A stretch of DNA of 64,000 bases from Candidatus Coprenecus stercoripullorum. GTDB lineage: Bacteria > Bacteroidota > Bacteroidia > Bacteroidales > UBA932. The notes under the pieces were generated by a model, which was not told where the DNA came from, did no database searches, and saw nothing but the letters and a program-made list of their open reading frames with translations. The stretch's first letter is position 1. Each line of letters begins with the position of its first letter. The position numbers were made by a program, and so were the translations under genes. The stretch is taken from NCBI GenBank assembly GCA_018715745.1, contig DVLA01000020.1, forward strand, positions 1-64,000. Direction: 5' to 3'. Positions 22,647-64,000 of this stretch are shown piece after piece.

Positions 22647-23834
22647 ATGGATCTAAACGAAGTCAAAAACCGTTTCGGCATAATAGGCAACGATGCGAGG
22701 CTCAACAGGGCGCTCGACACGGCAATACAGATTGCCGGCACAGATCTGTCAGTACTGATCACAGGGGAAAGCGGAGTAGGTAAAGAAGTGATACCTAAAG
22801 TAATACATGCTTTCAGCCCGAGGAAGCACAATACATATATAGCCATCAACTGCGGAGCTATTCCGGAAGGCACCATAGAATCCGAACTGTTCGGGCATGA
22901 AAAAGGTTCCTTTACAGGGGCGAACGAGGCAAGGAAAGGCTATTTCGAAGTGGCCGACGGGGGGACCATCTTTCTGGACGAGGTCGGCGAACTTCCGCTC
23001 TCCACACAGGTCAGGCTGCTTAGAGTGCTGGAAACCGGCGAATTCATAAGGGTCGGTTCCTCCAGGACCCAAAAGACAAATGTCAGGGTCATTGCAGCCT
23101 CGAATATAAATTTCATGCATGCCATCAATTCGGGAAAATTCAGGGAAGACCTCTACTACAGGCTGAATGCCGTTCCGATCTCCATACCTCCGCTCAGGGA
23201 AAGGAGAAATGACATTCACCTGCTGTTCATGAAGTTTGCGCTTGACTTCGCAGACAAATACAACATGCCGGCAATAAGGCTTACTCCGGAGGCACGGGAA
23301 ATAATCGAAAATTACCGCTGGCCGGGCAACATACGGCAACTCAAGAATGTGGCAGAGCAGATGTCGGTGCTCGAAAGCGAGCGCACCGTAAGCGGGGAAG
23401 CCGCATCCAGGTATCTTCCAGCCGACACTCCGGATGCTTTTCCGGTAAAAGTAGGGCAAGGCGGCTCGGCCGACAGGGACGGACTTACGGACAGGGATAT
23501 CATATTCAAAATCCTGTTTCAGCTCAGACAGGAAGTAGACGAGCTGAAAGCGGCCGTGGAAGGCAGGGACCCCGCAGACCGGACAACCCTGCTGTCAGCC
23601 GACAGCCACAACCTGCCGGTGAAGATGGCAGACACTCCTGCAAACATACCTATTATAGTCAGTCCCGACATAATAGAGGAACATGATACCGGCCGTACGA
23701 TTAAGGACGTAAACTCGGAAATGATAAAAAAGGCGCTGGCAAAGCATGAAGGCCGCCGCAAAGCGGCTGCGGCAGAGCTGGGAATATCCGAAAGGACCCT
23801 ATACAGGAAAATAAAGGAATTGCATTTAGAATAG
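22647..23834 (+). CDS. Sigma-54-dependent transcriptional activator lacking a receiver domain (AAA+ and Fis-type HTH)
   Basis: GESGVGKEVIPK Walker A, GSFTGA loop, GGTIFLDEVGELP, RWPGNIRQLKN, C-terminal HTH RKAAAAELGISERTLYRKIKEL. Confidence 0.93.
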   Translation: MDLNEVKNRFGIIGNDARLNRALDTAIQIAGTDLSVLITGESGVGKEVIPKVIHAFSPRKHNTYIAINCGAIPEGTIESELFGHEKGSFTGANEARKGYFEVADGGTIFLDEVGELPLSTQVRLLRVLETGEFIRVGSSRTQKTNVRVIAASNINFMHAINSGKFREDLYYRLNAVPISIPPLRERRNDIHLLFMKFALDFADKYNMPAIRLTPEAREIIENYRWPGNIRQLKNVAEQMSVLESERTVSGEAASRYLPADTPDAFPVKVGQGGSADRDGLTDRDIIFKILFQLRQEVDELKAAVEGRDPADRTTLLSADSHNLPVKMADTPANIPIIVSPDIIEEHDTGRTIKDVNSEMIKKALAKHEGRRKAAAAELGISERTLYRKIKELHLE

Positions 23835-55692: not shown

Positions 55693-56670
55693 TCAACGCC
55701 ATTCTTTTCTTTTGCTGTCCTCCGCACAGGCATGAGGCCGGACGGCATTGAGAAAACGCCCGTTGAGGACTGTCTCATATTTGCGCAGGTACGCCTCGGC
55801 CATAACTTTGGAATTGAACCTGTCCCGCGCATATTCATGACAGGTTTCCGGCCTGAACCGCCGCCCGTCCCGCAGAAATCCGACCATCTCGTCCTTGCTC
55901 CTGGTAAGGAAACCCACCTCCGGAATCACCAGTTCCGGCAGGGAACCGTAGGGAGTCCCGAATACCGGAGCGCCGAAATAAAGGCTCTCGATTATGGCAA
56001 GCCCGAAAGGCTCGTCCCATCTTGCCGGGAATACAAGCCCTTTCGAATGCCGGAGATAATGCTCCTTTTCCTCTCCCCCTACCATGCCTCTGAAACGCGC
56101 CTTGGGCGTAAGGGTCAGACGCAATCCCATTTTCAAATTAAAACGGCTGCCGCCCAATACGTACAGTCTCTCGCCTGGCAGAGCCCTGACCACATCGATA
56201 GCCCCTTTCACATTCTTCACGCGCCAGGCCGCCTTCCCCAGAAAATGATACCACATGCGGGACGCATTCAGATCGGCCTTGCCGTAACCGTTCCAGTCAA
56301 GGCCGTTGTACACGAACGAAGAGCTGCCGTATCTGCGGGCATGGTCGGATGATACGAATACCGCATTCCGGTCAAGTTCGCCTTTAAGGAAATTCCCGTG
56401 ATAAGTCACGATATAAGGTTTTCCGACATTTTCCGGCACCTTATCGTTAAAATGTACTATATCCGTATCTTCCGGTACCTGCGAGGCAACGGTTCTGGAA
56501 GGGTCAAAGACAATCACCCGCGCAAAATCGCAAAAAGACCCCTGCCTGGCAAGAAAACGGACATCGTGCCCCATTCCGGCAAGTTCCCTGGCCAGGGACC
56601 ACATCACTCTCTGCGTTCCGCCATAGGCCGTAACAGGTATCACCGAATCTATAAATATCAATATATTCAT
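55693..56670 (-). CDS. Glycosyltransferase family 4 protein
   Basis: MNILIFIDSVIPVTAYGGTQRVMWSLARELAGMGHDVRFLA; EHYLRHSKGLVFPARWDEPFGLAIIESLYFGAPVFGTPYGSLPELV. Start chosen at 56670. Confidence 0.9.
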   Translation of the reverse strand: MNILIFIDSVIPVTAYGGTQRVMWSLARELAGMGHDVRFLARQGSFCDFARVIVFDPSRTVASQVPEDTDIVHFNDKVPENVGKPYIVTYHGNFLKGELDRNAVFVSSDHARRYGSSSFVYNGLDWNGYGKADLNASRMWYHFLGKAAWRVKNVKGAIDVVRALPGERLYVLGGSRFNLKMGLRLTLTPKARFRGMVGGEEKEHYLRHSKGLVFPARWDEPFGLAIIESLYFGAPVFGTPYGSLPELVIPEVGFLTRSKDEMVGFLRDGRRFRPETCHEYARDRFNSKVMAEAYLRKYETVLNGRFLNAVRPHACAEDSKRKEWR

Positions 56671-56690: not shown

Positions 56691-56726
56691 CAAAAATAAC
56701 ATTTACTGCAAACAGTAACAAAAATA
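56691..56726 (-). promoter_or_regulatory. Candidate -33/-7 promoter for the GT4 gene, with internal TTACTG-CAAA-CAGTAA palindrome (56703-56718)
   Basis: Minus strand TTTG-N20-TATTTTTG; the 6-4-6 palindrome occupies the spacer. Confidence 0.55.
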
Positions 56727-56727
56727 G

Positions 56728-56761
56728 TGTCCGCCTGCGGACAATTGTCCGCAAACGGACA
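56728..56761 (+). promoter_or_regulatory. Tandem palindromes TGTCCG-N4-CGGACA (56728-56743 and 56746-56761), candidate sigma-54 enhancer (UAS)
   Basis: Two perfect 6-4-6 palindromes with 18-bp centre spacing, 46-79 bp upstream of the -24 element. Confidence 0.75.
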
Positions 56762-56806
56762 CATGTTTTTACACATAAACACATGATAATCAAATAAAAT
56801 GAACTC

Positions 56807-56822
56807 AGGCACAAGGTTTGCC
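56807..56822 (+). promoter_or_regulatory. Sigma-54 (-24/-12) promoter
   Basis: AGGCAC-AAGGT-TTGCC; GG and GC dinucleotides separated by exactly 10 bp; 40 bp upstream of ATG 56862. Confidence 0.8.
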
Positions 56823-56861
56823 GGAGCGTTGCACGATTAATAACGGACAACCTTGAAGAAG

Positions 56862-58112
56862 ATGGACAGAGCCTTGACATCCAAAGAAAAAGCCGGAAGG
56901 AAACTCAGGAAAATCCTGGGATGGGCTGCCCCCTGTGCAGGAATGCTTGCAGCATTGGTCACAGTACTGCTGCTTATAAAGCCATCCGTAAGATGGGACA
57001 GAATCAAAACCGGAACAGTTTCGGAAGGGGACATAGATTTCTCGGTATTCGCCTCCGGGCATATCGCCCCGGGACATCAGGAAACCATAAACTCCCCCAT
57101 CGAGTCACGCATACTGGAAGTTTTCAGGAAGGCCGGGGACATAGTGGAAAAGGGAGACCCCATTGTGCGTCTTGACCTTTCTGAAATACAGACAGAATAT
57201 CTTAACATGGAAGACGAGGCCAGGATGAAGGAACTGGAACTGGAAAAACTCAGGATAACGAACAGCAACAGCCTGGACGAGCTTCAAATGCAGATAGACG
57301 TAGACCGCATGGAACTCGAGAAGCTTGCTGCCGCCCTGGAAAATGAGATTTACCTCGATTCTATCGGGGCCGGAACGCCCGACAAGGTAAGGGAGGCCCG
57401 TCTTGCCCACACGGTAGCCGGCATAAAGCTGGACAACAACCTCCGGAAGATTGAGAATGAAAAACGCCTTGCCAAAGCCGACGAGAACATAAAAGACCTG
57501 GACCTGAAAATCTTCCGCAAGAAGATGGAATATGAGCGCAAATTGCTGGAAGAGTCGAGAATCCTCGCTCCGTGGCCAGCTACCGTGGTAGCCGTAAATA
57601 ATGAAATAGGTGCGCGGGTCTCGCAGACAGACATGGTCGTGACTTTGGCTGATCTCAGCAGGTTCAAGGTAGAAGGCCGGATAGGGGACAGGCAGAGCGA
57701 CAGAATAGGCCTCGGAATGGAAGTTGCCGTAATCGCCGGAGGGGACACCATCGGAGGAAGGGTGTCGGGGCTTTCGCCGGTCTCGTCCGAAGGAACTATA
57801 CCATTTACCGTACAGCTCGACAACGAAAGGAATCCGGCCTTGCGCTCGGGCCTGAGATGCGAAATCTATATTATATACGCATACGAAAAAAACGTACTAC
57901 GCCTGCCGAACGGGAACTACTATAAGGGTCCCGGAAAATACTGGCTTTTCGTAAAAGAAGGGAATGTGGCAAAAAGAAGGGAAATAACGCTCGGAGAGGC
58001 CAATTTCGATTACGTGGAAGTCATCTCGGGAATCGAGGGCGGTGATGAAGTGATACTCGAAAATACAGACAGATACAGAAAACTTGATAAAATTAAAATA
58101 AAGAAAACATGA
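56862..58112 (+). CDS. HlyD/RND-type periplasmic adaptor subunit
   Basis: Single TM, biotinyl-lipoyl-like and coiled-coil hairpin (QETINSPIESRILEVFRKAGDIVEKGDPIVRLDLSEIQTEYLNMEDEARMKELELEKLR). Start TTG 56853 or ATG 56862. Confidence 0.88.
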   Translation: MDRALTSKEKAGRKLRKILGWAAPCAGMLAALVTVLLLIKPSVRWDRIKTGTVSEGDIDFSVFASGHIAPGHQETINSPIESRILEVFRKAGDIVEKGDPIVRLDLSEIQTEYLNMEDEARMKELELEKLRITNSNSLDELQMQIDVDRMELEKLAAALENEIYLDSIGAGTPDKVREARLAHTVAGIKLDNNLRKIENEKRLAKADENIKDLDLKIFRKKMEYERKLLEESRILAPWPATVVAVNNEIGARVSQTDMVVTLADLSRFKVEGRIGDRQSDRIGLGMEVAVIAGGDTIGGRVSGLSPVSSEGTIPFTVQLDNERNPALRSGLRCEIYIIYAYEKNVLRLPNGNYYKGPGKYWLFVKEGNVAKRREITLGEANFDYVEVISGIEGGDEVILENTDRYRKLDKIKIKKT

Positions 58113-59413
58113 ACGCAGGTTTCTACTTCAAGCAGGCATGGTACAACATACGTACCGACAAGACCTACAGTGCGGTATTCATTCTGGGCACATCCATGTC
58201 CGTCGCACTCATAATGGCCTTCCTGTCAATTGCGTCCCTGAAGTTCGCAAACACGTATCCCGAAAGGCACAGGGACAGAACCATGACCGTAAACCACGCC
58301 AGACTGACTGTCGGCAACGGGAATATGGAGTCGACCATCTCCCCGAAATTCGTCGAAACTTTTATCGAAGGCATCCCGGGGATAGAAGAAATATCCACAG
58401 TCTATTCGGGCCTGTTCATCACTTCCCTGAGCTTTACTACGGAAGACGGGGAACTGGCTTTCAAGGCATCGCCCCTGTTCGTGGATACGGACTTCTGGAA
58501 AGTATTCGACTTCCAGACTGTAGAGGGAAGGCTGTTTACTGAAAACGGGACCTCCCCGTCCGCACCGGAAATAGTGATATCGAAAAGCACTGCCATGAGA
58601 GTATTCAACCGGACTGATGTCATAGGGGAAATTATTTTCCTAAGACGCACCCCGATGAAGATATGCGGCGTAGTCAGGGACGTACCGGTAACGGCAGGGT
58701 CCACATGTGCAGATATATATATACCAATAAGCGTGGCCGAGTCATGGCCGGAAGAATCGTTTTTCGATGAGAATCCCGGGGGGATTTTCGGCGATCACAT
58801 GGCCTACATTCTGGCAAAAGACAGAAAATATCTGAATTCCATCAAGGAAGAAGTCAATGCGAGAGTTCAGAGGTACAATGAAAGCAATCCTGACAAGTAT
58901 GTCCTCGACTGCTACGGAGCGCCGTTTACGACACTCGAACTGTTCCTGTACGATACTGGGAACGATTCCGGGGACTTGGCTGTCATTTCATTATGTTCCA
59001 TACTGTTAATCATGGCAATTCCGCTGTTCAACCTTTCCGGAATGGTCACTTCGAGAATCGAAAACAGATTCGAAGAGTTCGGCCTTAGAAAATCGTTCGG
59101 TGCAAGGCCAGGCAACATCCTGTGGCAGGTAATATGGGAAAACCTGCTTATGACCTCGGCAGGGGGGATTATCGGAGTAATAGGCTCATTCCTTATCATA
59201 ACGGCATTATCCCCGAGGCTTAACGGGATTTTGGGAAACTTTTTCGCTGTCAATCCCATATCCGAAACCATGCCTTTAAGGGAACTAATACGCACTGATC
59301 TCATACTGCCGCTTATAGCACTGATTCTTACCCTCAATATATTTTCAGCCATAATACCTGCCAGAAAAGCTATCCGCAGACCGATAGCGGAATCCCTGGC
59401 CCAAAAACAGTAA
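58109..59413 (+). CDS. MacB/FtsX-type ABC transporter permease
   Basis: MacB-PCD-like periplasmic domain and FtsX C-terminal TMs (IENRFEEFGLRKSFGARPGNILWQVIWENLLMT). Confidence 0.9.
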   Translation: MNAGFYFKQAWYNIRTDKTYSAVFILGTSMSVALIMAFLSIASLKFANTYPERHRDRTMTVNHARLTVGNGNMESTISPKFVETFIEGIPGIEEISTVYSGLFITSLSFTTEDGELAFKASPLFVDTDFWKVFDFQTVEGRLFTENGTSPSAPEIVISKSTAMRVFNRTDVIGEIIFLRRTPMKICGVVRDVPVTAGSTCADIYIPISVAESWPEESFFDENPGGIFGDHMAYILAKDRKYLNSIKEEVNARVQRYNESNPDKYVLDCYGAPFTTLELFLYDTGNDSGDLAVISLCSILLIMAIPLFNLSGMVTSRIENRFEEFGLRKSFGARPGNILWQVIWENLLMTSAGGIIGVIGSFLIITALSPRLNGILGNFFAVNPISETMPLRELIRTDLILPLIALILTLNIFSAIIPARKAIRRPIAESLAQKQ

Positions 59414-59418
59414 CAGCC

Positions 59419-60687
59419 ATGATCAGACACATATTCAAACAACTCTGGTTCTACAAAAAGAAAAGCGCATGGCTCCTTATCGAGTCGTTCATAATATTCA
59501 CATGCTCCTGGTTCATAATCAACTCCCTGTGGGAGAGATTCTACGTATCCAACCTCGAGGACAGGGGTTTCGACACGCGGGACTGCTGGGTGCTCACACT
59601 GCATAACGGGGGAGACGGCCAGGACATTATCGGCAAGGCAGAAACCGACATGATAAACGATTACCTGAAGAACCTGCCCGAAATACTGTATTCCGCTCCG
59701 GCAGACATGACTTACCCGGGACTTTACAGCAACAACAATTACATAATATACACCGACTCTACAAACCAGGTGCTGCAGCGGACAATAGACAGGCAGTCCG
59801 GAGCAGGCGACCTTGATGTCATAGGCATAAAGACAATCTTCCCCGCAGACGGGAAAATCTCCGATGCGCCGGGCACCGTGATTATTTCAGAAGATATCGC
59901 CAGAAAGTTCTTCCCGGGTGAAAACCCCGTAGGAAAGATAGTAAGAAGCAATTACGGCAACAGCAGTACATATATCGTATCCGGGGTCATAAACAGCATT
60001 ATAGAAGACTGTATGTCGGATACAAGCCCGGTGCCCGTAGTAATGTACAACCAAAGCAATCTGAACGAGGCAATAGACGACACCCCGATTATAATATTCC
60101 GCACAAGGCCCGGATGCGATTCGGAGAAGCTTAACGGAATGATAACCAAAGACCTCAACCGAATGCTTGAAAGCTGCGGATATATGGTGGAAGAGATAAC
60201 ATCGTACGAGGGGATAATCCAGGAAATGAGCAGAATGTTCGACAGGTCCCCCCTGCTTTACATAATTCTGGTTTTCCTTATCATAAATGCATTTCTTTCA
60301 ATAGCCTCCTACACATGGCTTTCGCTCGAAACAAGAAAACAGGAAACCGGACTCAGAAAAGCGGTGGGCGGGACTTCCGCCGCAATACGGCTCCAATATC
60401 TGACGGAAGCGATAATCCTCTGCATAACGGCGATAGTAATAGGAATTGCCATCATTCTGAATATTATCCTGATACTTGACATAGACATCGCTACCTCCAC
60501 CCAATACTGCGCGAGCATTCCGGAAACGATAAAAGAGCATCCGCTCCTATACGACAGCACGGCCAGGTTCATTGCAATCACATCCATAGCAGTCGTCATT
60601 TCCATCATCACCGCCGCAATATCGTCAGTAATCCCCACGGTAAAATCGCTCAAGGCATCCCCTACCGAAACACTGAAAGAAGAATAA
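59419..60687 (+). CDS. MacB/FtsX-type ABC transporter permease
   Basis: Same layout; TWLSLETRKQETGLRKAVGGTSAAIRLQYLTEAIILC. Confidence 0.9.
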   Translation: MIRHIFKQLWFYKKKSAWLLIESFIIFTCSWFIINSLWERFYVSNLEDRGFDTRDCWVLTLHNGGDGQDIIGKAETDMINDYLKNLPEILYSAPADMTYPGLYSNNNYIIYTDSTNQVLQRTIDRQSGAGDLDVIGIKTIFPADGKISDAPGTVIISEDIARKFFPGENPVGKIVRSNYGNSSTYIVSGVINSIIEDCMSDTSPVPVVMYNQSNLNEAIDDTPIIIFRTRPGCDSEKLNGMITKDLNRMLESCGYMVEEITSYEGIIQEMSRMFDRSPLLYIILVFLIINAFLSIASYTWLSLETRKQETGLRKAVGGTSAAIRLQYLTEAIILCITAIVIGIAIILNIILILDIDIATSTQYCASIPETIKEHPLLYDSTARFIAITSIAVVISIITAAISSVIPTVKSLKASPTETLKEE

Positions 60688-60708: not shown

Positions 60709-61377
60709 ATGATAAAACTCACTCAAATATCAAAAATCTACCGCACTACGGAAATAGAGACAGTAGCGTTGGAAAACATCAACTTGGAAATACGCGGAGG
60801 CGAATTCGTCAGCATAATGGGCCCCTCGGGGTGCGGCAAGTCCACCCTGCTCAATATCGCGGGGATACTCGACGAGCCCACTTCCGGCAAGGTGGAACTT
60901 GACGGCAAAGACGTATCCTCCCTCGGCACAAAGGAGGCCGCAGCATTCCGCAACTGCAAGTTAGGCTTCGTATTCCAGAGTTTCCACCTTATACCCTCGC
61001 TCAACGTCATAGACAATGTGCAGATTCCGCTCATGTACCGCAAGGGTATCAGTCAAAGACAGAAAAAAGAGATGGCAACTGCAATGATAGAGAAAGTGGG
61101 GCTGATTCACCGCATGAAACATTTCCCGTCACAGCTTTCCGGGGGACAGTGCCAGAGGGTGGCGATAGCCAGGGCCCTGGTCGGAGACCCTAAAATCATC
61201 CTCGCCGACGAGCCTACAGGAAACCTCGACTCCAAAATGGGTTCGGAAATAATGTCCATGCTCCATCAAATCAACAAGAACGATGGTAAAACCATATTGA
61301 TGGTAACCCACAACGAGGCCCAGGCCAGGCAGACCGACCGCATAATAAGGATGATGGACGGAAGAATAATTGAATAA
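60709..61377 (+). CDS. ABC transporter ATP-binding protein (MacB/LolD type)
   Basis: [46 protein letters not shown]. Confidence 0.95.
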
Positions 61378-62881
61378 CGCTATGCCTGTCATACGCATCA
61401 TATTGCTGGCATGCTGCATGCTGCCCCTTGCGGTACCGGCGGCAGCCTCCGATGCCGGGAGAAATGTCATTAACCTGTCGCTGGAAAAGGCCATCGACCT
61501 GGCATGCATGCAGTCGGTAGATGCCGCCATAGCCGGGAACCAGCTCAAAAGCTCATATTGGGAATTCCGAACCTACAGGGCTGAACGGCTTCCCGAGCTC
61601 GTCCTGAGCGGCAACCTTCCGGATTACAGCAACAACTTTACGCCCTACCAGCATGATGACGGCAGCTATTCCTATGTAAGGAACAATCTGATAGGCATAT
61701 CCGGCGCCCTCTCCATAACCCAGAATATCCCGTTCACCGGCGGTACGCTGTCCCTGAGCACATCATTGGACCTGACACGCCAGCTCGGACATGGGGCAAT
61801 GAACGAATTTCTGGCCATCCCGGTATCGCTTACCCTGAACCAGCCGCTGTTCGGAGTAAACACATTCAAGTGGGACAAGAAGATAGAGCCGGTCAAATAC
61901 GAGGAAGCCAAAGCCCAGTACCTCCAGGATGTCGAAGAAATAAAGAAAAATGCCATAACATATTTCTTCAACTATCTATTGTCGGCGGAAAACCTGGGAA
62001 TCGCCGAACAGAACATGGAGAATGCGGACAGGCTGTACGTGATAGCCCTCGAAAAGAGACGGATGGGCCAGATCTCCGAGACAGAACTGATGCAGCTAAA
62101 GCTGTCCGCACTACAGGCAAAGGCCGATGTTACTGCATGCCAAAGTGATGTAAAATCCAAAATGTTTCAGCTCAGGGCCTTTCTCGGCCTTTCCGAAAAC
62201 GACTCGATTGCAGCAGAGTTACCGGATAAAATATCCGTCGGCCGGCTTGAATATGCGGATGTCCTCGACAAGGCCATTGCAAACAACCCTTTCACCCAGA
62301 ATATACTCAGACGCCAGCTCGAAGCCGACTATGAAGTTGCGGCCGCAAAAGGGGAACGATACCGGATAGACCTCACCGCCACTGTAGGTTATTCAGGTAC
62401 AAACAGGACTTTGTCCGGCTCTTACGGAAACCTCGGCAATGAACAGATAGTCTCCGTAGGGCTGTCCGTCCCTATCCTCGACTGGGGGAAAAGGAAGGGC
62501 GAGGTAAAGGTAGCCGAAAGCAACCGGGACGTGGTCGAATCCCAGATCCGTCAGGACAGGCTTAATTTCAATCAGGACGTATTCCTCATAGTGGAACAGT
62601 TCAACAACCAGGCCGGGCAGCTGTCAATAGCCGAAGAAGCCGACAAAATCGCGTCTGAACGCTACAAGTCATCGGTTGAAGCCTTTCTGCTGGGGAAAAT
62701 GGATGTCCTGGAGCTGAATGACGCAAGGGACGCAAAGGACGAGGCCAGGCGCAAGTACATATCGGAAATGTACTATTACTGGTACTACTTCTATGACATA
62801 CGTGCCCTTACCTTATGGGACTATATGGCCGACAGGAATATAAGGGGGGCCGACGAAGCAATTTTTGATATATCTTTGTAA
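61370..62881 (+). CDS. TolC-family outer membrane efflux protein
   Basis: Signal peptide, LEKAIDLACMQSVDAAIAGNQLKSSYWEFRTYRAERLPEL and paired coiled-coil repeats of the OEP family. Confidence 0.92.
   Translation: MNNAMPVIRIILLACCMLPLAVPAAASDAGRNVINLSLEKAIDLACMQSVDAAIAGNQLKSSYWEFRTYRAERLPELVLSGNLPDYSNNFTPYQHDDGSYSYVRNNLIGISGALSITQNIPFTGGTLSLSTSLDLTRQLGHGAMNEFLAIPVSLTLNQPLFGVNTFKWDKKIEPVKYEEAKAQYLQDVEEIKKNAITYFFNYLLSAENLGIAEQNMENADRLYVIALEKRRMGQISETELMQLKLSALQAKADVTACQSDVKSKMFQLRAFLGLSENDSIAAELPDKISVGRLEYADVLDKAIANNPFTQNILRRQLEADYEVAAAKGERYRIDLTATVGYSGTNRTLSGSYGNLGNEQIVSVGLSVPILDWGKRKGEVKVAESNRDVVESQIRQDRLNFNQDVFLIVEQFNNQAGQLSIAEEADKIASERYKSSVEAFLLGKMDVLELNDARDAKDEARRKYISEMYYYWYYFYDIRALTLWDYMADRNIRGADEAIFDISL
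62871..62878 (+). promoter_or_regulatory. Candidate internal -7 box (TATCTTTG) for the response regulator
   Basis: TAnnTTTG 7 nt upstream of ATG 62886, overlapping the last TolC codons (ISL). Confidence 0.35.
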
Positions 62882-62885
62882 TATT

Positions 62886-64000
62886 ATGATTCTTATCGTA
62901 GATGACGACGAAAGCGTAAGGGCGTCGCTCTCATTTCTGCTCAAGCGTTCAGGCTATGAGGCCATCGCCGTACCCACCCCGGAAGAGGCGGTCGCACAGG
63001 TCCGCGGCACAGAGCCGGAAGCCATATTGATGGACATGAACTATTCCCTGTCGATTACCGGGGAAGAAGGTCTCGAGTTGCTGAGAAAAATAAGGATACT
63101 GGCGCCCTCATCCCCGGTCATACTGATGACGGCATGGGGAAGCATCCCGCTGGCGGTAGAAGGCATGAGGATAGGTGCTTTCGACTTTATCACGAAGCCG
63201 TGGGACAATTTCAGCCTGCTTGAGAGAATCAGGACAGCCGTAGAACTGAACAGGAGCAGGGAACCGGATACGGAAACGGCCGCACACCGGGAAGGTTTCG
63301 ATAAAATAATAGGCAAAAGCAATATCCTTCGTGAAGTATTGGATGCAGTATCCATGGTGGCCCCGACAGGCGCCTCGGTTCTGATTACGGGAGAAAGCGG
63401 AACGGGAAAAGAGCTTATAGCGGAAGCAATCCACCTGAACAGCCCCAGGTCCGGGCACCCTTTTATAAAAGTCAATCTCGGAGGATTGAGTCCTACCCTT
63501 TTCGACAGCGAAATGTTCGGCCACAGAAAGGGGGCCTTTACCGATGCCTTTACCGACCGCAAAGGCAGGTTCGAACTTGCCGACAAGGGAACCATCTTCC
63601 TGGACGAGATAGGGGAGCTTGACCCGGTATGCCAGGTCAAGCTCCTGCGCGTGCTGCAGGACAGGACTTACGAGCCTCTCGGCGACAGCCGCCCGAGAAA
63701 GGCTGACGTTAGGGTAATATCGGCAACAAACAGGAATCTGGCCGGGATGGTCTCAGGCGGGACATTCCGGGAAGACCTGTACTATCGCATAAACCTGATT
63801 CCGATCCACCTTCCGGCATTGAGGGAAAGGCGCGGGGACATACCGCTGCTGGTACGGCATTTTGCCGATACCGTCAGACCGGGTGCGGAATTTTCGCCTG
63901 AAGCGATGGAATACCTCTGCCGTCTGCCGTGGCCCGGTAATATACGGGAACTGAAAAACCTCACCGAACGCGTCATAATCCTTAGCGGAAACAGGAGGAT
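62886..64000 (+). CDS. Sigma-54-dependent response regulator (receiver and AAA+; C-terminus beyond window)
   Basis: [29 protein letters not shown]...ILMDMNYS receiver; [21 protein letters not shown] loop; [40 protein letters not shown]. Open to window end. Confidence 0.95.

What the first reader, a model, noticed from the sequence alone, without database searches (positions are those of the whole stretch)
56728..56822. Tandem TGTCCG-N4-CGGACA palindromes at enhancer distance from a near-consensus sigma-54 promoter driving an export operon
Seen directly: TGTCCGCCTGCGGACA (56728-56743) and TGTCCGCAAACGGACA (56746-56761), centres 18 bp apart, followed by AGGCAC-AAGGT-TTGCC (56807-56822) with correct GG-N10-GC spacing. 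Known: bacterial enhancer-binding proteins bind paired palindromes roughly 80-150 bp upstream of -24/-12 promoters. The predicted start near 56833 puts the palindromes at about -98 and -80. The operon downstream ends in a sigma-54 response regulator. Inference: that regulator binds these sites and autoregulates a HlyD/ABC/TolC exporter of unknown substrate.
Basis: partly seen in the sequence, partly recalled or inferred. Interest (0 to 1): 0.85.

Follow-up and report, generated by a model that had tools for sequence, protein, structure and literature searches.

The report
Sigma-54 enhancer controlling a Bacteroidales exporter
Two matching DNA palindromes and a sigma-54 promoter, kept at a fixed distance from each other in gut bacteria of many families, very probably form the switch by which a sensor-regulator pair turns on an efflux pump of unknown substrate and, in some species, scattered spare parts of the same kind of pump.

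Summary
The sequence observation is exact. The two palindromes are the only perfect copies in the 1.69-Mb genome.

The window belongs to Candidatus Coprenecus (Bacteroidales). The operon is MFP, two MacB-type permeases, ABC ATPase, TolC and an NtrC-family response regulator (RR). It continues past the window into a histidine kinase.

In 61 of 64 named Bacteroidales loci where the MFP gene is promoter-proximal, the same palindrome precedes a -24/-12 element, 58-61 bp away (79-81 bp for the distal copy). The element tracks the RR:
- Three Coprenecus genomes lacking the RR and exporter orthologues lack it.
- 0 of 23 paralogous-RR loci have it, against 22 of 43 orthologous loci.
- In genomes with the RR it also occurs, unlinked, before orphan permease pairs and a second exporter operon.
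- The innermost half-site base is A instead of G in the RR clade whose recognition helix has Gly after Ser-Arg.

All scored kinases resemble intramembrane-sensing kinases of antimicrobial-peptide modules. Binding, sigma-54 dependence, signal and substrate are untested. I found no description of this operator in the papers searched. It is a new member of a known kind with an unusually clean, testable regulon.

The parts
56728..56743 (.). Distal RR-binding palindrome TGTCCGCCTGCGGACA, centre about -97.5 from the predicted start site
   Evidence: in the genus the distal palindrome starts 79 bp before the -24 element (78 in one genome)
56746..56761 (.). Proximal RR-binding palindrome TGTCCGCAAACGGACA, centre about -79.5
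   Evidence: proximal palindrome starts 60-61 bp before the -24 element in most orthologous loci
56807..56821 (+). -24/-12 element AGGCACAAGGTTTGC; predicted transcription start about 56833
   Evidence: rpoN present in genome
56862..58112 (+). Periplasmic adaptor (HlyD/MacA-like MFP); ATG start, MDR N-terminus invariant in relatives
58109..59413 (+). MacB-type half permease A (MacB_PCD + FtsX)
59419..60687 (+). MacB-type half permease B (MacB_PCD + FtsX)
60709..61377 (+). ABC ATPase, LolD/DarD/MacB-like
61370..62881 (+). TolC-family outer membrane channel
62886..64000 (+). NtrC-family response regulator (REC, sigma-54 activation domain, Fis-type HTH); continues to 64232 on the contig; followed by a histidine kinase from 64229, outside the window

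Best explanation
This is the enhancer and promoter of an autoregulated exporter operon. When the membrane kinase (encoded downstream of the RR) senses its signal it phosphorylates the NtrC-family RR. RR dimers bind the two palindromes, presumably nucleating the AAA+ hexamer. Through looping they open sigma-54 RNA polymerase at the -24/-12 element, which begins 61 bp after the start of the proximal palindrome. Transcription from about 56833 makes the MacAB-TolC-like exporter and, as the genes are contiguous, more RR and kinase. Shown: the sequences, the gene order, deep conservation of palindrome, promoter element and spacing, and their tracking with this RR. Inferred: binding, phosphorylation, sigma-54 dependence, and positive rather than negative action. 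Most speculative: that the exporter removes envelope-active compounds such as antimicrobial peptides, sensed at the membrane.
For: (1) Fixed geometry: of 64 named loci with MFP promoter-proximal, 63 have a palindrome with at most 3 mismatches (15 exact) and 61 a palindrome plus -24/-12 pair. The best pair is at 58-61 bp in 52 and 79-81 bp in 9. In a second, overlapping set, 32 of 40 sites are at 60-62 bp and 6 at 70-73 bp, one helical turn further. (2) It tracks the RR: genomes G001, G004 and G008 lack the RR orthologue, the MFP orthologue and the palindrome. In the genus, 8 of 9 hits of the composite pattern are the exporter promoter, with 0 control hits. (3) Composite scan of 395 Bacteroidales genomes: 26 hits, 18 of them in the roughly 28 genomes with the RR orthologue; 3 control hits. 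(4) 22 of 43 RR-orthologue loci carry the composite at a strict threshold; 0 of 23 paralogue loci; 1 of 43 at each set of off-phase spacings. (5) It acts in trans: unlinked composite elements precede an MFP-permease-ABC operon (L279) and orphan permease pairs (L278, L280). In several Coprenecus the RR-kinase pair is not next to the exporter (L271-L275). (6) All seven SRG-type RRs with a palindrome found have CCA-N4-TGG inner bases; SR[A/Q/P/S/T] types have mainly CG inner bases. (7) The genome has rpoN.
Against: No binding, expression or start-site data exist. The -24/-12 score in the window is not exceptional alone and has A for T at its first base. Some orthologous loci show a weaker -12 (GT or GA for GC), and a few RR-orthologue loci show no recognisable operator (L132, L145). 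The RR's sigma-54 contact loop reads GAFTDA rather than GAFTGA in most members. The SRG operator switch reflects only one or two evolutionary events. G305 has the operator and exporter, but no RR orthologue was found in that MAG.
Confidence: 0.86

Rival explanations
1. A different regulator, not this RR, binds the palindromes; the RR controls something else.
For: No direct binding data. In some Coprenecus the RR gene is unlinked from the exporter, and in G305 the operator is present without a detected RR orthologue.
Against: The operator is absent in the three genus members without the RR orthologue, absent from 23 paralogous-RR loci, and changes with the RR recognition helix. The site lies at enhancer distance from a -24/-12 element, which requires an enhancer-binding protein.
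Confidence: 0.08
2. The palindromes are a hairpin terminator, attenuator or repressor site, and the -24/-12 match is coincidental.
For: Each palindrome could form a 6-bp stem in RNA; -24/-12 matches are common by chance in this window.
Against: The intergenic region lies between two divergent genes, upstream of the predicted start, so no transcript need terminate there. Palindrome to -24/-12 spacing is kept at 60-61 or about 71 bp over many families, which a hairpin would not require.
Confidence: 0.03
3. The operator mainly controls the divergent glycosyltransferase gene (55693-56670), directly or by blocking its housekeeping-type promoter.
For: On the minus strand two TATTTTTG boxes (-7 type) lie at 56726 and 56698, next to the palindromes.
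Against: The neighbour on the other side differs among orthologous loci, while the operator always faces the exporter.
Confidence: 0.03

Closest known systems
QseF/GlrR (NtrC-family RR) enhancer sites upstream of glmY in Enterobacterales
   Same: NtrC-family RR with a sigma-54 promoter (own knowledge) and dyad sites beginning TGTC and ending GACA (TGTCN10GACA, PMC8745638)
   Different: Site here is TGTCCG-N4-CGGACA (TGTC-N8-GACA); target is an exporter operon containing the RR, not a small RNA
Bce/Vir-type antimicrobial-peptide resistance modules of Firmicutes
   Same: ABC exporter with a large extracytoplasmic permease domain coupled to a two-component system whose kinase has almost no external sensor domain (PMC7828314)
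   Different: Here the RR is a sigma-54 NtrC type, the exporter is tripartite with TolC, and permeases are MacB-type half-transporter pairs; transporter-dependent sensing is not shown
MacAB-TolC and darobactin (Dar) exporters
   Same: MFP, MacB_PCD-FtsX permease, LolD-like ATPase, TolC
   Different: ATPase and permease are separate genes, permeases come as unequal pairs, and Dar equivalog cut-offs are not reached
Predicted sigma-54 regulon of Bacteroidia (PMC12316311)
   Same: Reports enrichment of predicted sigma-54 promoters at COG0577 ABC permeases in Bacteroidia
   Different: I found no operator, cognate regulator or spacing described there in the passages read

Membership tests
Sigma-54-dependent promoter | -24/-12 element with GG-N10-GC | tested here: met
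   AGGCACAAGGTTTGC 56807-56821; conserved in position in orthologues
Sigma-54-dependent promoter | rpoN in the genome | tested here: met
   PF04552 hit G000:C46, E 1.2e-53
Sigma-54-dependent promoter | Transcription lost without rpoN and enhancer-binding protein | not testable with these tools
   needs mutants and 5'-end mapping
NtrC-family response regulator | REC, sigma-54 activation domain, Fis-type HTH | tested here: met
   PF00072, PF00158, PF02954 above cut-off
NtrC-family response regulator | GAFTGA loop contacting sigma-54 | tested here: inconclusive
   GAFTDA in most, GAFTGA in some members; F and T kept
Operator of this RR | Operator co-occurs with RR orthologues and not with paralogues | tested here: met
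Operator of this RR | Direct, sequence-specific binding | not testable with these tools
   EMSA or DAP-seq needed
MacAB-TolC-like exporter | MFP, MacB_PCD/FtsX permease, ABC ATPase, TolC | tested here: met
Darobactin exporter (DarC/DarD equivalogs) | Equivalog cut-offs reached | tested here: not met
   DarC 45.7 bits vs 450; DarD 252.7 vs 375
Intramembrane-sensing histidine kinase | Two N-terminal TM helices with a very short external loop | tested here: met
   loop of 8 aa in own kinase, 2-16 aa by hydropathy in all kinases scored
Bce-type transporter-sensing module | Kinase activity depends on the transporter | not testable with these tools
   needs genetics

The most novel reading that the evidence does not exclude
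A sigma-54 counterpart of the Bce module: a membrane-embedded kinase reads the exporter or membrane state, and one RR with a strict operator-promoter spacing code activates, in trans, dispersed and interchangeable MacB-type permease pairs that share one ATPase, adaptor and TolC, so that the cell assembles exporters of different specificity from a common chassis.
Probability: 0.3. Interest if true: 0.72.

Novelty: new member of a known kind. Interest (0 to 1): 0.52.

Why it matters
Sigma-54 regulons of Bacteroidales are poorly mapped and I found no published enhancer of this kind. The element is simple enough (palindrome, 60-61 bp, TGGCA) to name a regulator's targets across a major gut order, including cultured species such as Parabacteroides distasonis, P. 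goldsteinii and Bacteroides pyogenes. It links a sensor pair to a multi-part exporter whose substrate can then be sought by asking what induces the promoter.

Tried and rejected
Genome-wide regulon in the window's own genome: the other one-mismatch palindromes have no -24/-12 at the right spacing, except one weak off-consensus hit (L010, 82 bp).

Exact palindromes across 395 genomes are no commoner than the reversed control overall; the signal is local to the exporter loci.

A Bacteroides-type TAnnTTTG promoter for the exporter: none on the plus strand of the intergenic region.

Darobactin exporter: equivalog cut-offs not met.

PADLOC hits to the ATPase and RR look like generic ATPase matches.

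Literature: no paper found that describes the operator (open-access library only).

A bidirectional sigma-54 reading of the -24/-12 (its reverse also scores moderately in some loci) was not pursued.

Full report
OBSERVATION. Both palindromes and the -24/-12 element are present exactly as described. Perfect TGTCCG-N4-CGGACA occurs at only these two places in the 1.69-Mb, 86%-complete genome. The -24/-12 match on its own is at chance level for the window. The elements sit in a 191-bp region between a leftward glycosyltransferase gene (starts 56670) and the rightward exporter operon.

OPERON. The genes are: adaptor (HlyD/MacA-like), two MacB_PCD-FtsX half permeases, LolD/MacB-like ATPase, TolC, and an NtrC-family RR with REC, sigma-54 activation and Fis-HTH domains. 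Gaps are at most 21 bp. The window cuts the RR; on the contig it ends at 64232 and a histidine kinase begins at 64229, cut by the contig end at 65390. The first gene starts at ATG 56862, because the MDR N-terminus is invariant in 16 relatives. The predicted transcription start of 56833 leaves a 29-nt leader.

ORGANISM. Named relatives with the closest adaptor proteins are Candidatus Coprenecus MAGs, order Bacteroidales.

CONSERVATION OF THE ELEMENT. In other Coprenecus genomes the exporter is larger (at least four permease pairs around one ATPase in some) and the adaptor gene is usually internal. Even so, the region upstream of the first permease carries the palindromes, often as a tandem pair with 18-bp spacing, and a TGGCAC-N5-TTG element 79 bp (78 in one) from the start of the distal palindrome and 61 (60) bp from the proximal one. 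Outside the genus the proximal palindrome is mostly at 60-61 bp, or at 70-73 bp in six loci, one helical turn further. In 61 of 64 named loci with a promoter-proximal adaptor gene the pair is present: Parabacteroides distasonis, P. goldsteinii, P. gordonii, Tannerella, Proteiniphilum, Bacteroides pyogenes, B. luti, Porphyromonas. The distal palindrome is often reduced to its inner half-site (my reading of the sequences; not scored separately).

TRACKING WITH THE RR. Thirteen of 19 genus genomes have exact sites. Of the other six, G001, G004 and G008 have neither RR nor adaptor orthologue; G005 and G015 have contigs that end before the promoter; and G006 has the site with one mismatch on another contig (L277). 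A relaxed composite pattern hits nine places in the genus, eight of them this promoter, with no control hits. Over 395 Bacteroidales genomes the composite pattern hits 26 places, 18 of them in the about 28 genomes with an RR orthologue of at least 51% identity; the reversed control hits 3. At a strict threshold 22 of 43 RR-orthologue loci have the composite, 0 of 23 loci around paralogous RRs do, and off-phase spacings give 1 of 43 each.

TRANS-ACTING REGULON. In genomes with the RR, further composite elements precede TolC or ATPase genes in the same cluster (L120, L122, L125), an unlinked adaptor-permease-ATPase operon (L279) and unlinked orphan permease pairs (L278, L280). In several Coprenecus the RR-kinase pair lies away from the exporter (L271-L275); the assemblies are incomplete, so genome distance is not known. 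This argues for one trans-acting regulator serving dispersed parts of one kind of exporter.

RECOGNITION-HELIX CO-CHANGE. RRs with SRA, SRQ, SRP, SRS or SRT in the recognition helix go with TGTCCG or TGTTCG half-sites (some have one arm with A). All seven SRG RRs for which a palindrome was found go with CCA-N4-TGG inner bases, four of them scored at 71-73 bp spacing. On an RR tree built without the HTH, SRG needs one or two origins, so this is a clade-level switch: consistent with direct binding, not an independent repeat.

SENSOR. All scored kinases have two N-terminal TM helices separated by 2-16 residues by a simple hydropathy scan (8 in the window's own kinase), followed by PAS and kinase domains, with a HAMP domain recognised in some. 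That is the layout of intramembrane-sensing kinases, which in Firmicutes work with ABC exporters against envelope-active peptides (PMC7828314). The parallel is a lead for substrate and signal, not a test.

MECHANISM AND CONFIDENCE. Most likely: kinase signal, RR phosphorylation, binding of RR dimers to the tandem palindromes, hexamer assembly, sigma-54 activation by looping, and transcription of exporter plus RR and kinase (positive autoregulation, because the genes are contiguous). Shown here are sequence, gene order, conservation and co-occurrence. Binding, sigma-54 dependence, direction of regulation, signal and substrate are inferred. Caveats: GAFTDA instead of GAFTGA in most RRs, -12 variants, and a few orthologous loci without a recognisable operator.

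NOVELTY. RR-controlled sigma-54 promoters with paired dyads are a known kind, and QseF/GlrR uses a related dyad (TGTCN10GACA; PMC8745638). A 2025 survey predicts sigma-54 promoters enriched at ABC permease genes in Bacteroidia (PMC12316311). I found no description of this operator, its regulator or its regulon in the open-access library searched; subscription papers were not covered.

Noticed in passing
56691-56726 (minus strand): Two TATTTTTG boxes (Bacteroides -7 type) in front of the divergent glycosyltransferase gene, one directly beside the distal palindrome; RR binding might also affect that gene.
   Followed up: partly
L054, L055, L056, L058, L062 (Coprenecus relatives): Arrays of several MacB-type permease pairs (four or more in some) around a single ATPase and a single adaptor gene, against one pair in the window.
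   Followed up: partly
L278 6688-9410, L280 7473-10116: Orphan permease pairs without ATPase or adaptor, preceded by the same operator and -24/-12 spacing, in genomes that have the RR elsewhere.
   Followed up: partly
L059 5598-6884, L061, L062, L067: An AAA_14/DUF4143 gene (identified in L059; same-length gene in the others) sits in front of the RR and kinase genes, divergent from the exporter, in some Coprenecus.
   Followed up: partly
G018: C1 138131 and C13 36484: Two RR orthologues (70% and 73% identity) in one Coprenecus genome, one next to the exporter and one elsewhere.
   Followed up: partly
L123 5485-8091: An 868-aa histidine kinase with an ABC substrate-binding-like N-terminus inserted between TolC and permease genes of an orthologous cluster.
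   Followed up: no
window 22680-23180: A second sigma-54 activator gene in the window, a weaker relative of the RR (49% over the AAA domain); not studied.
   Followed up: no
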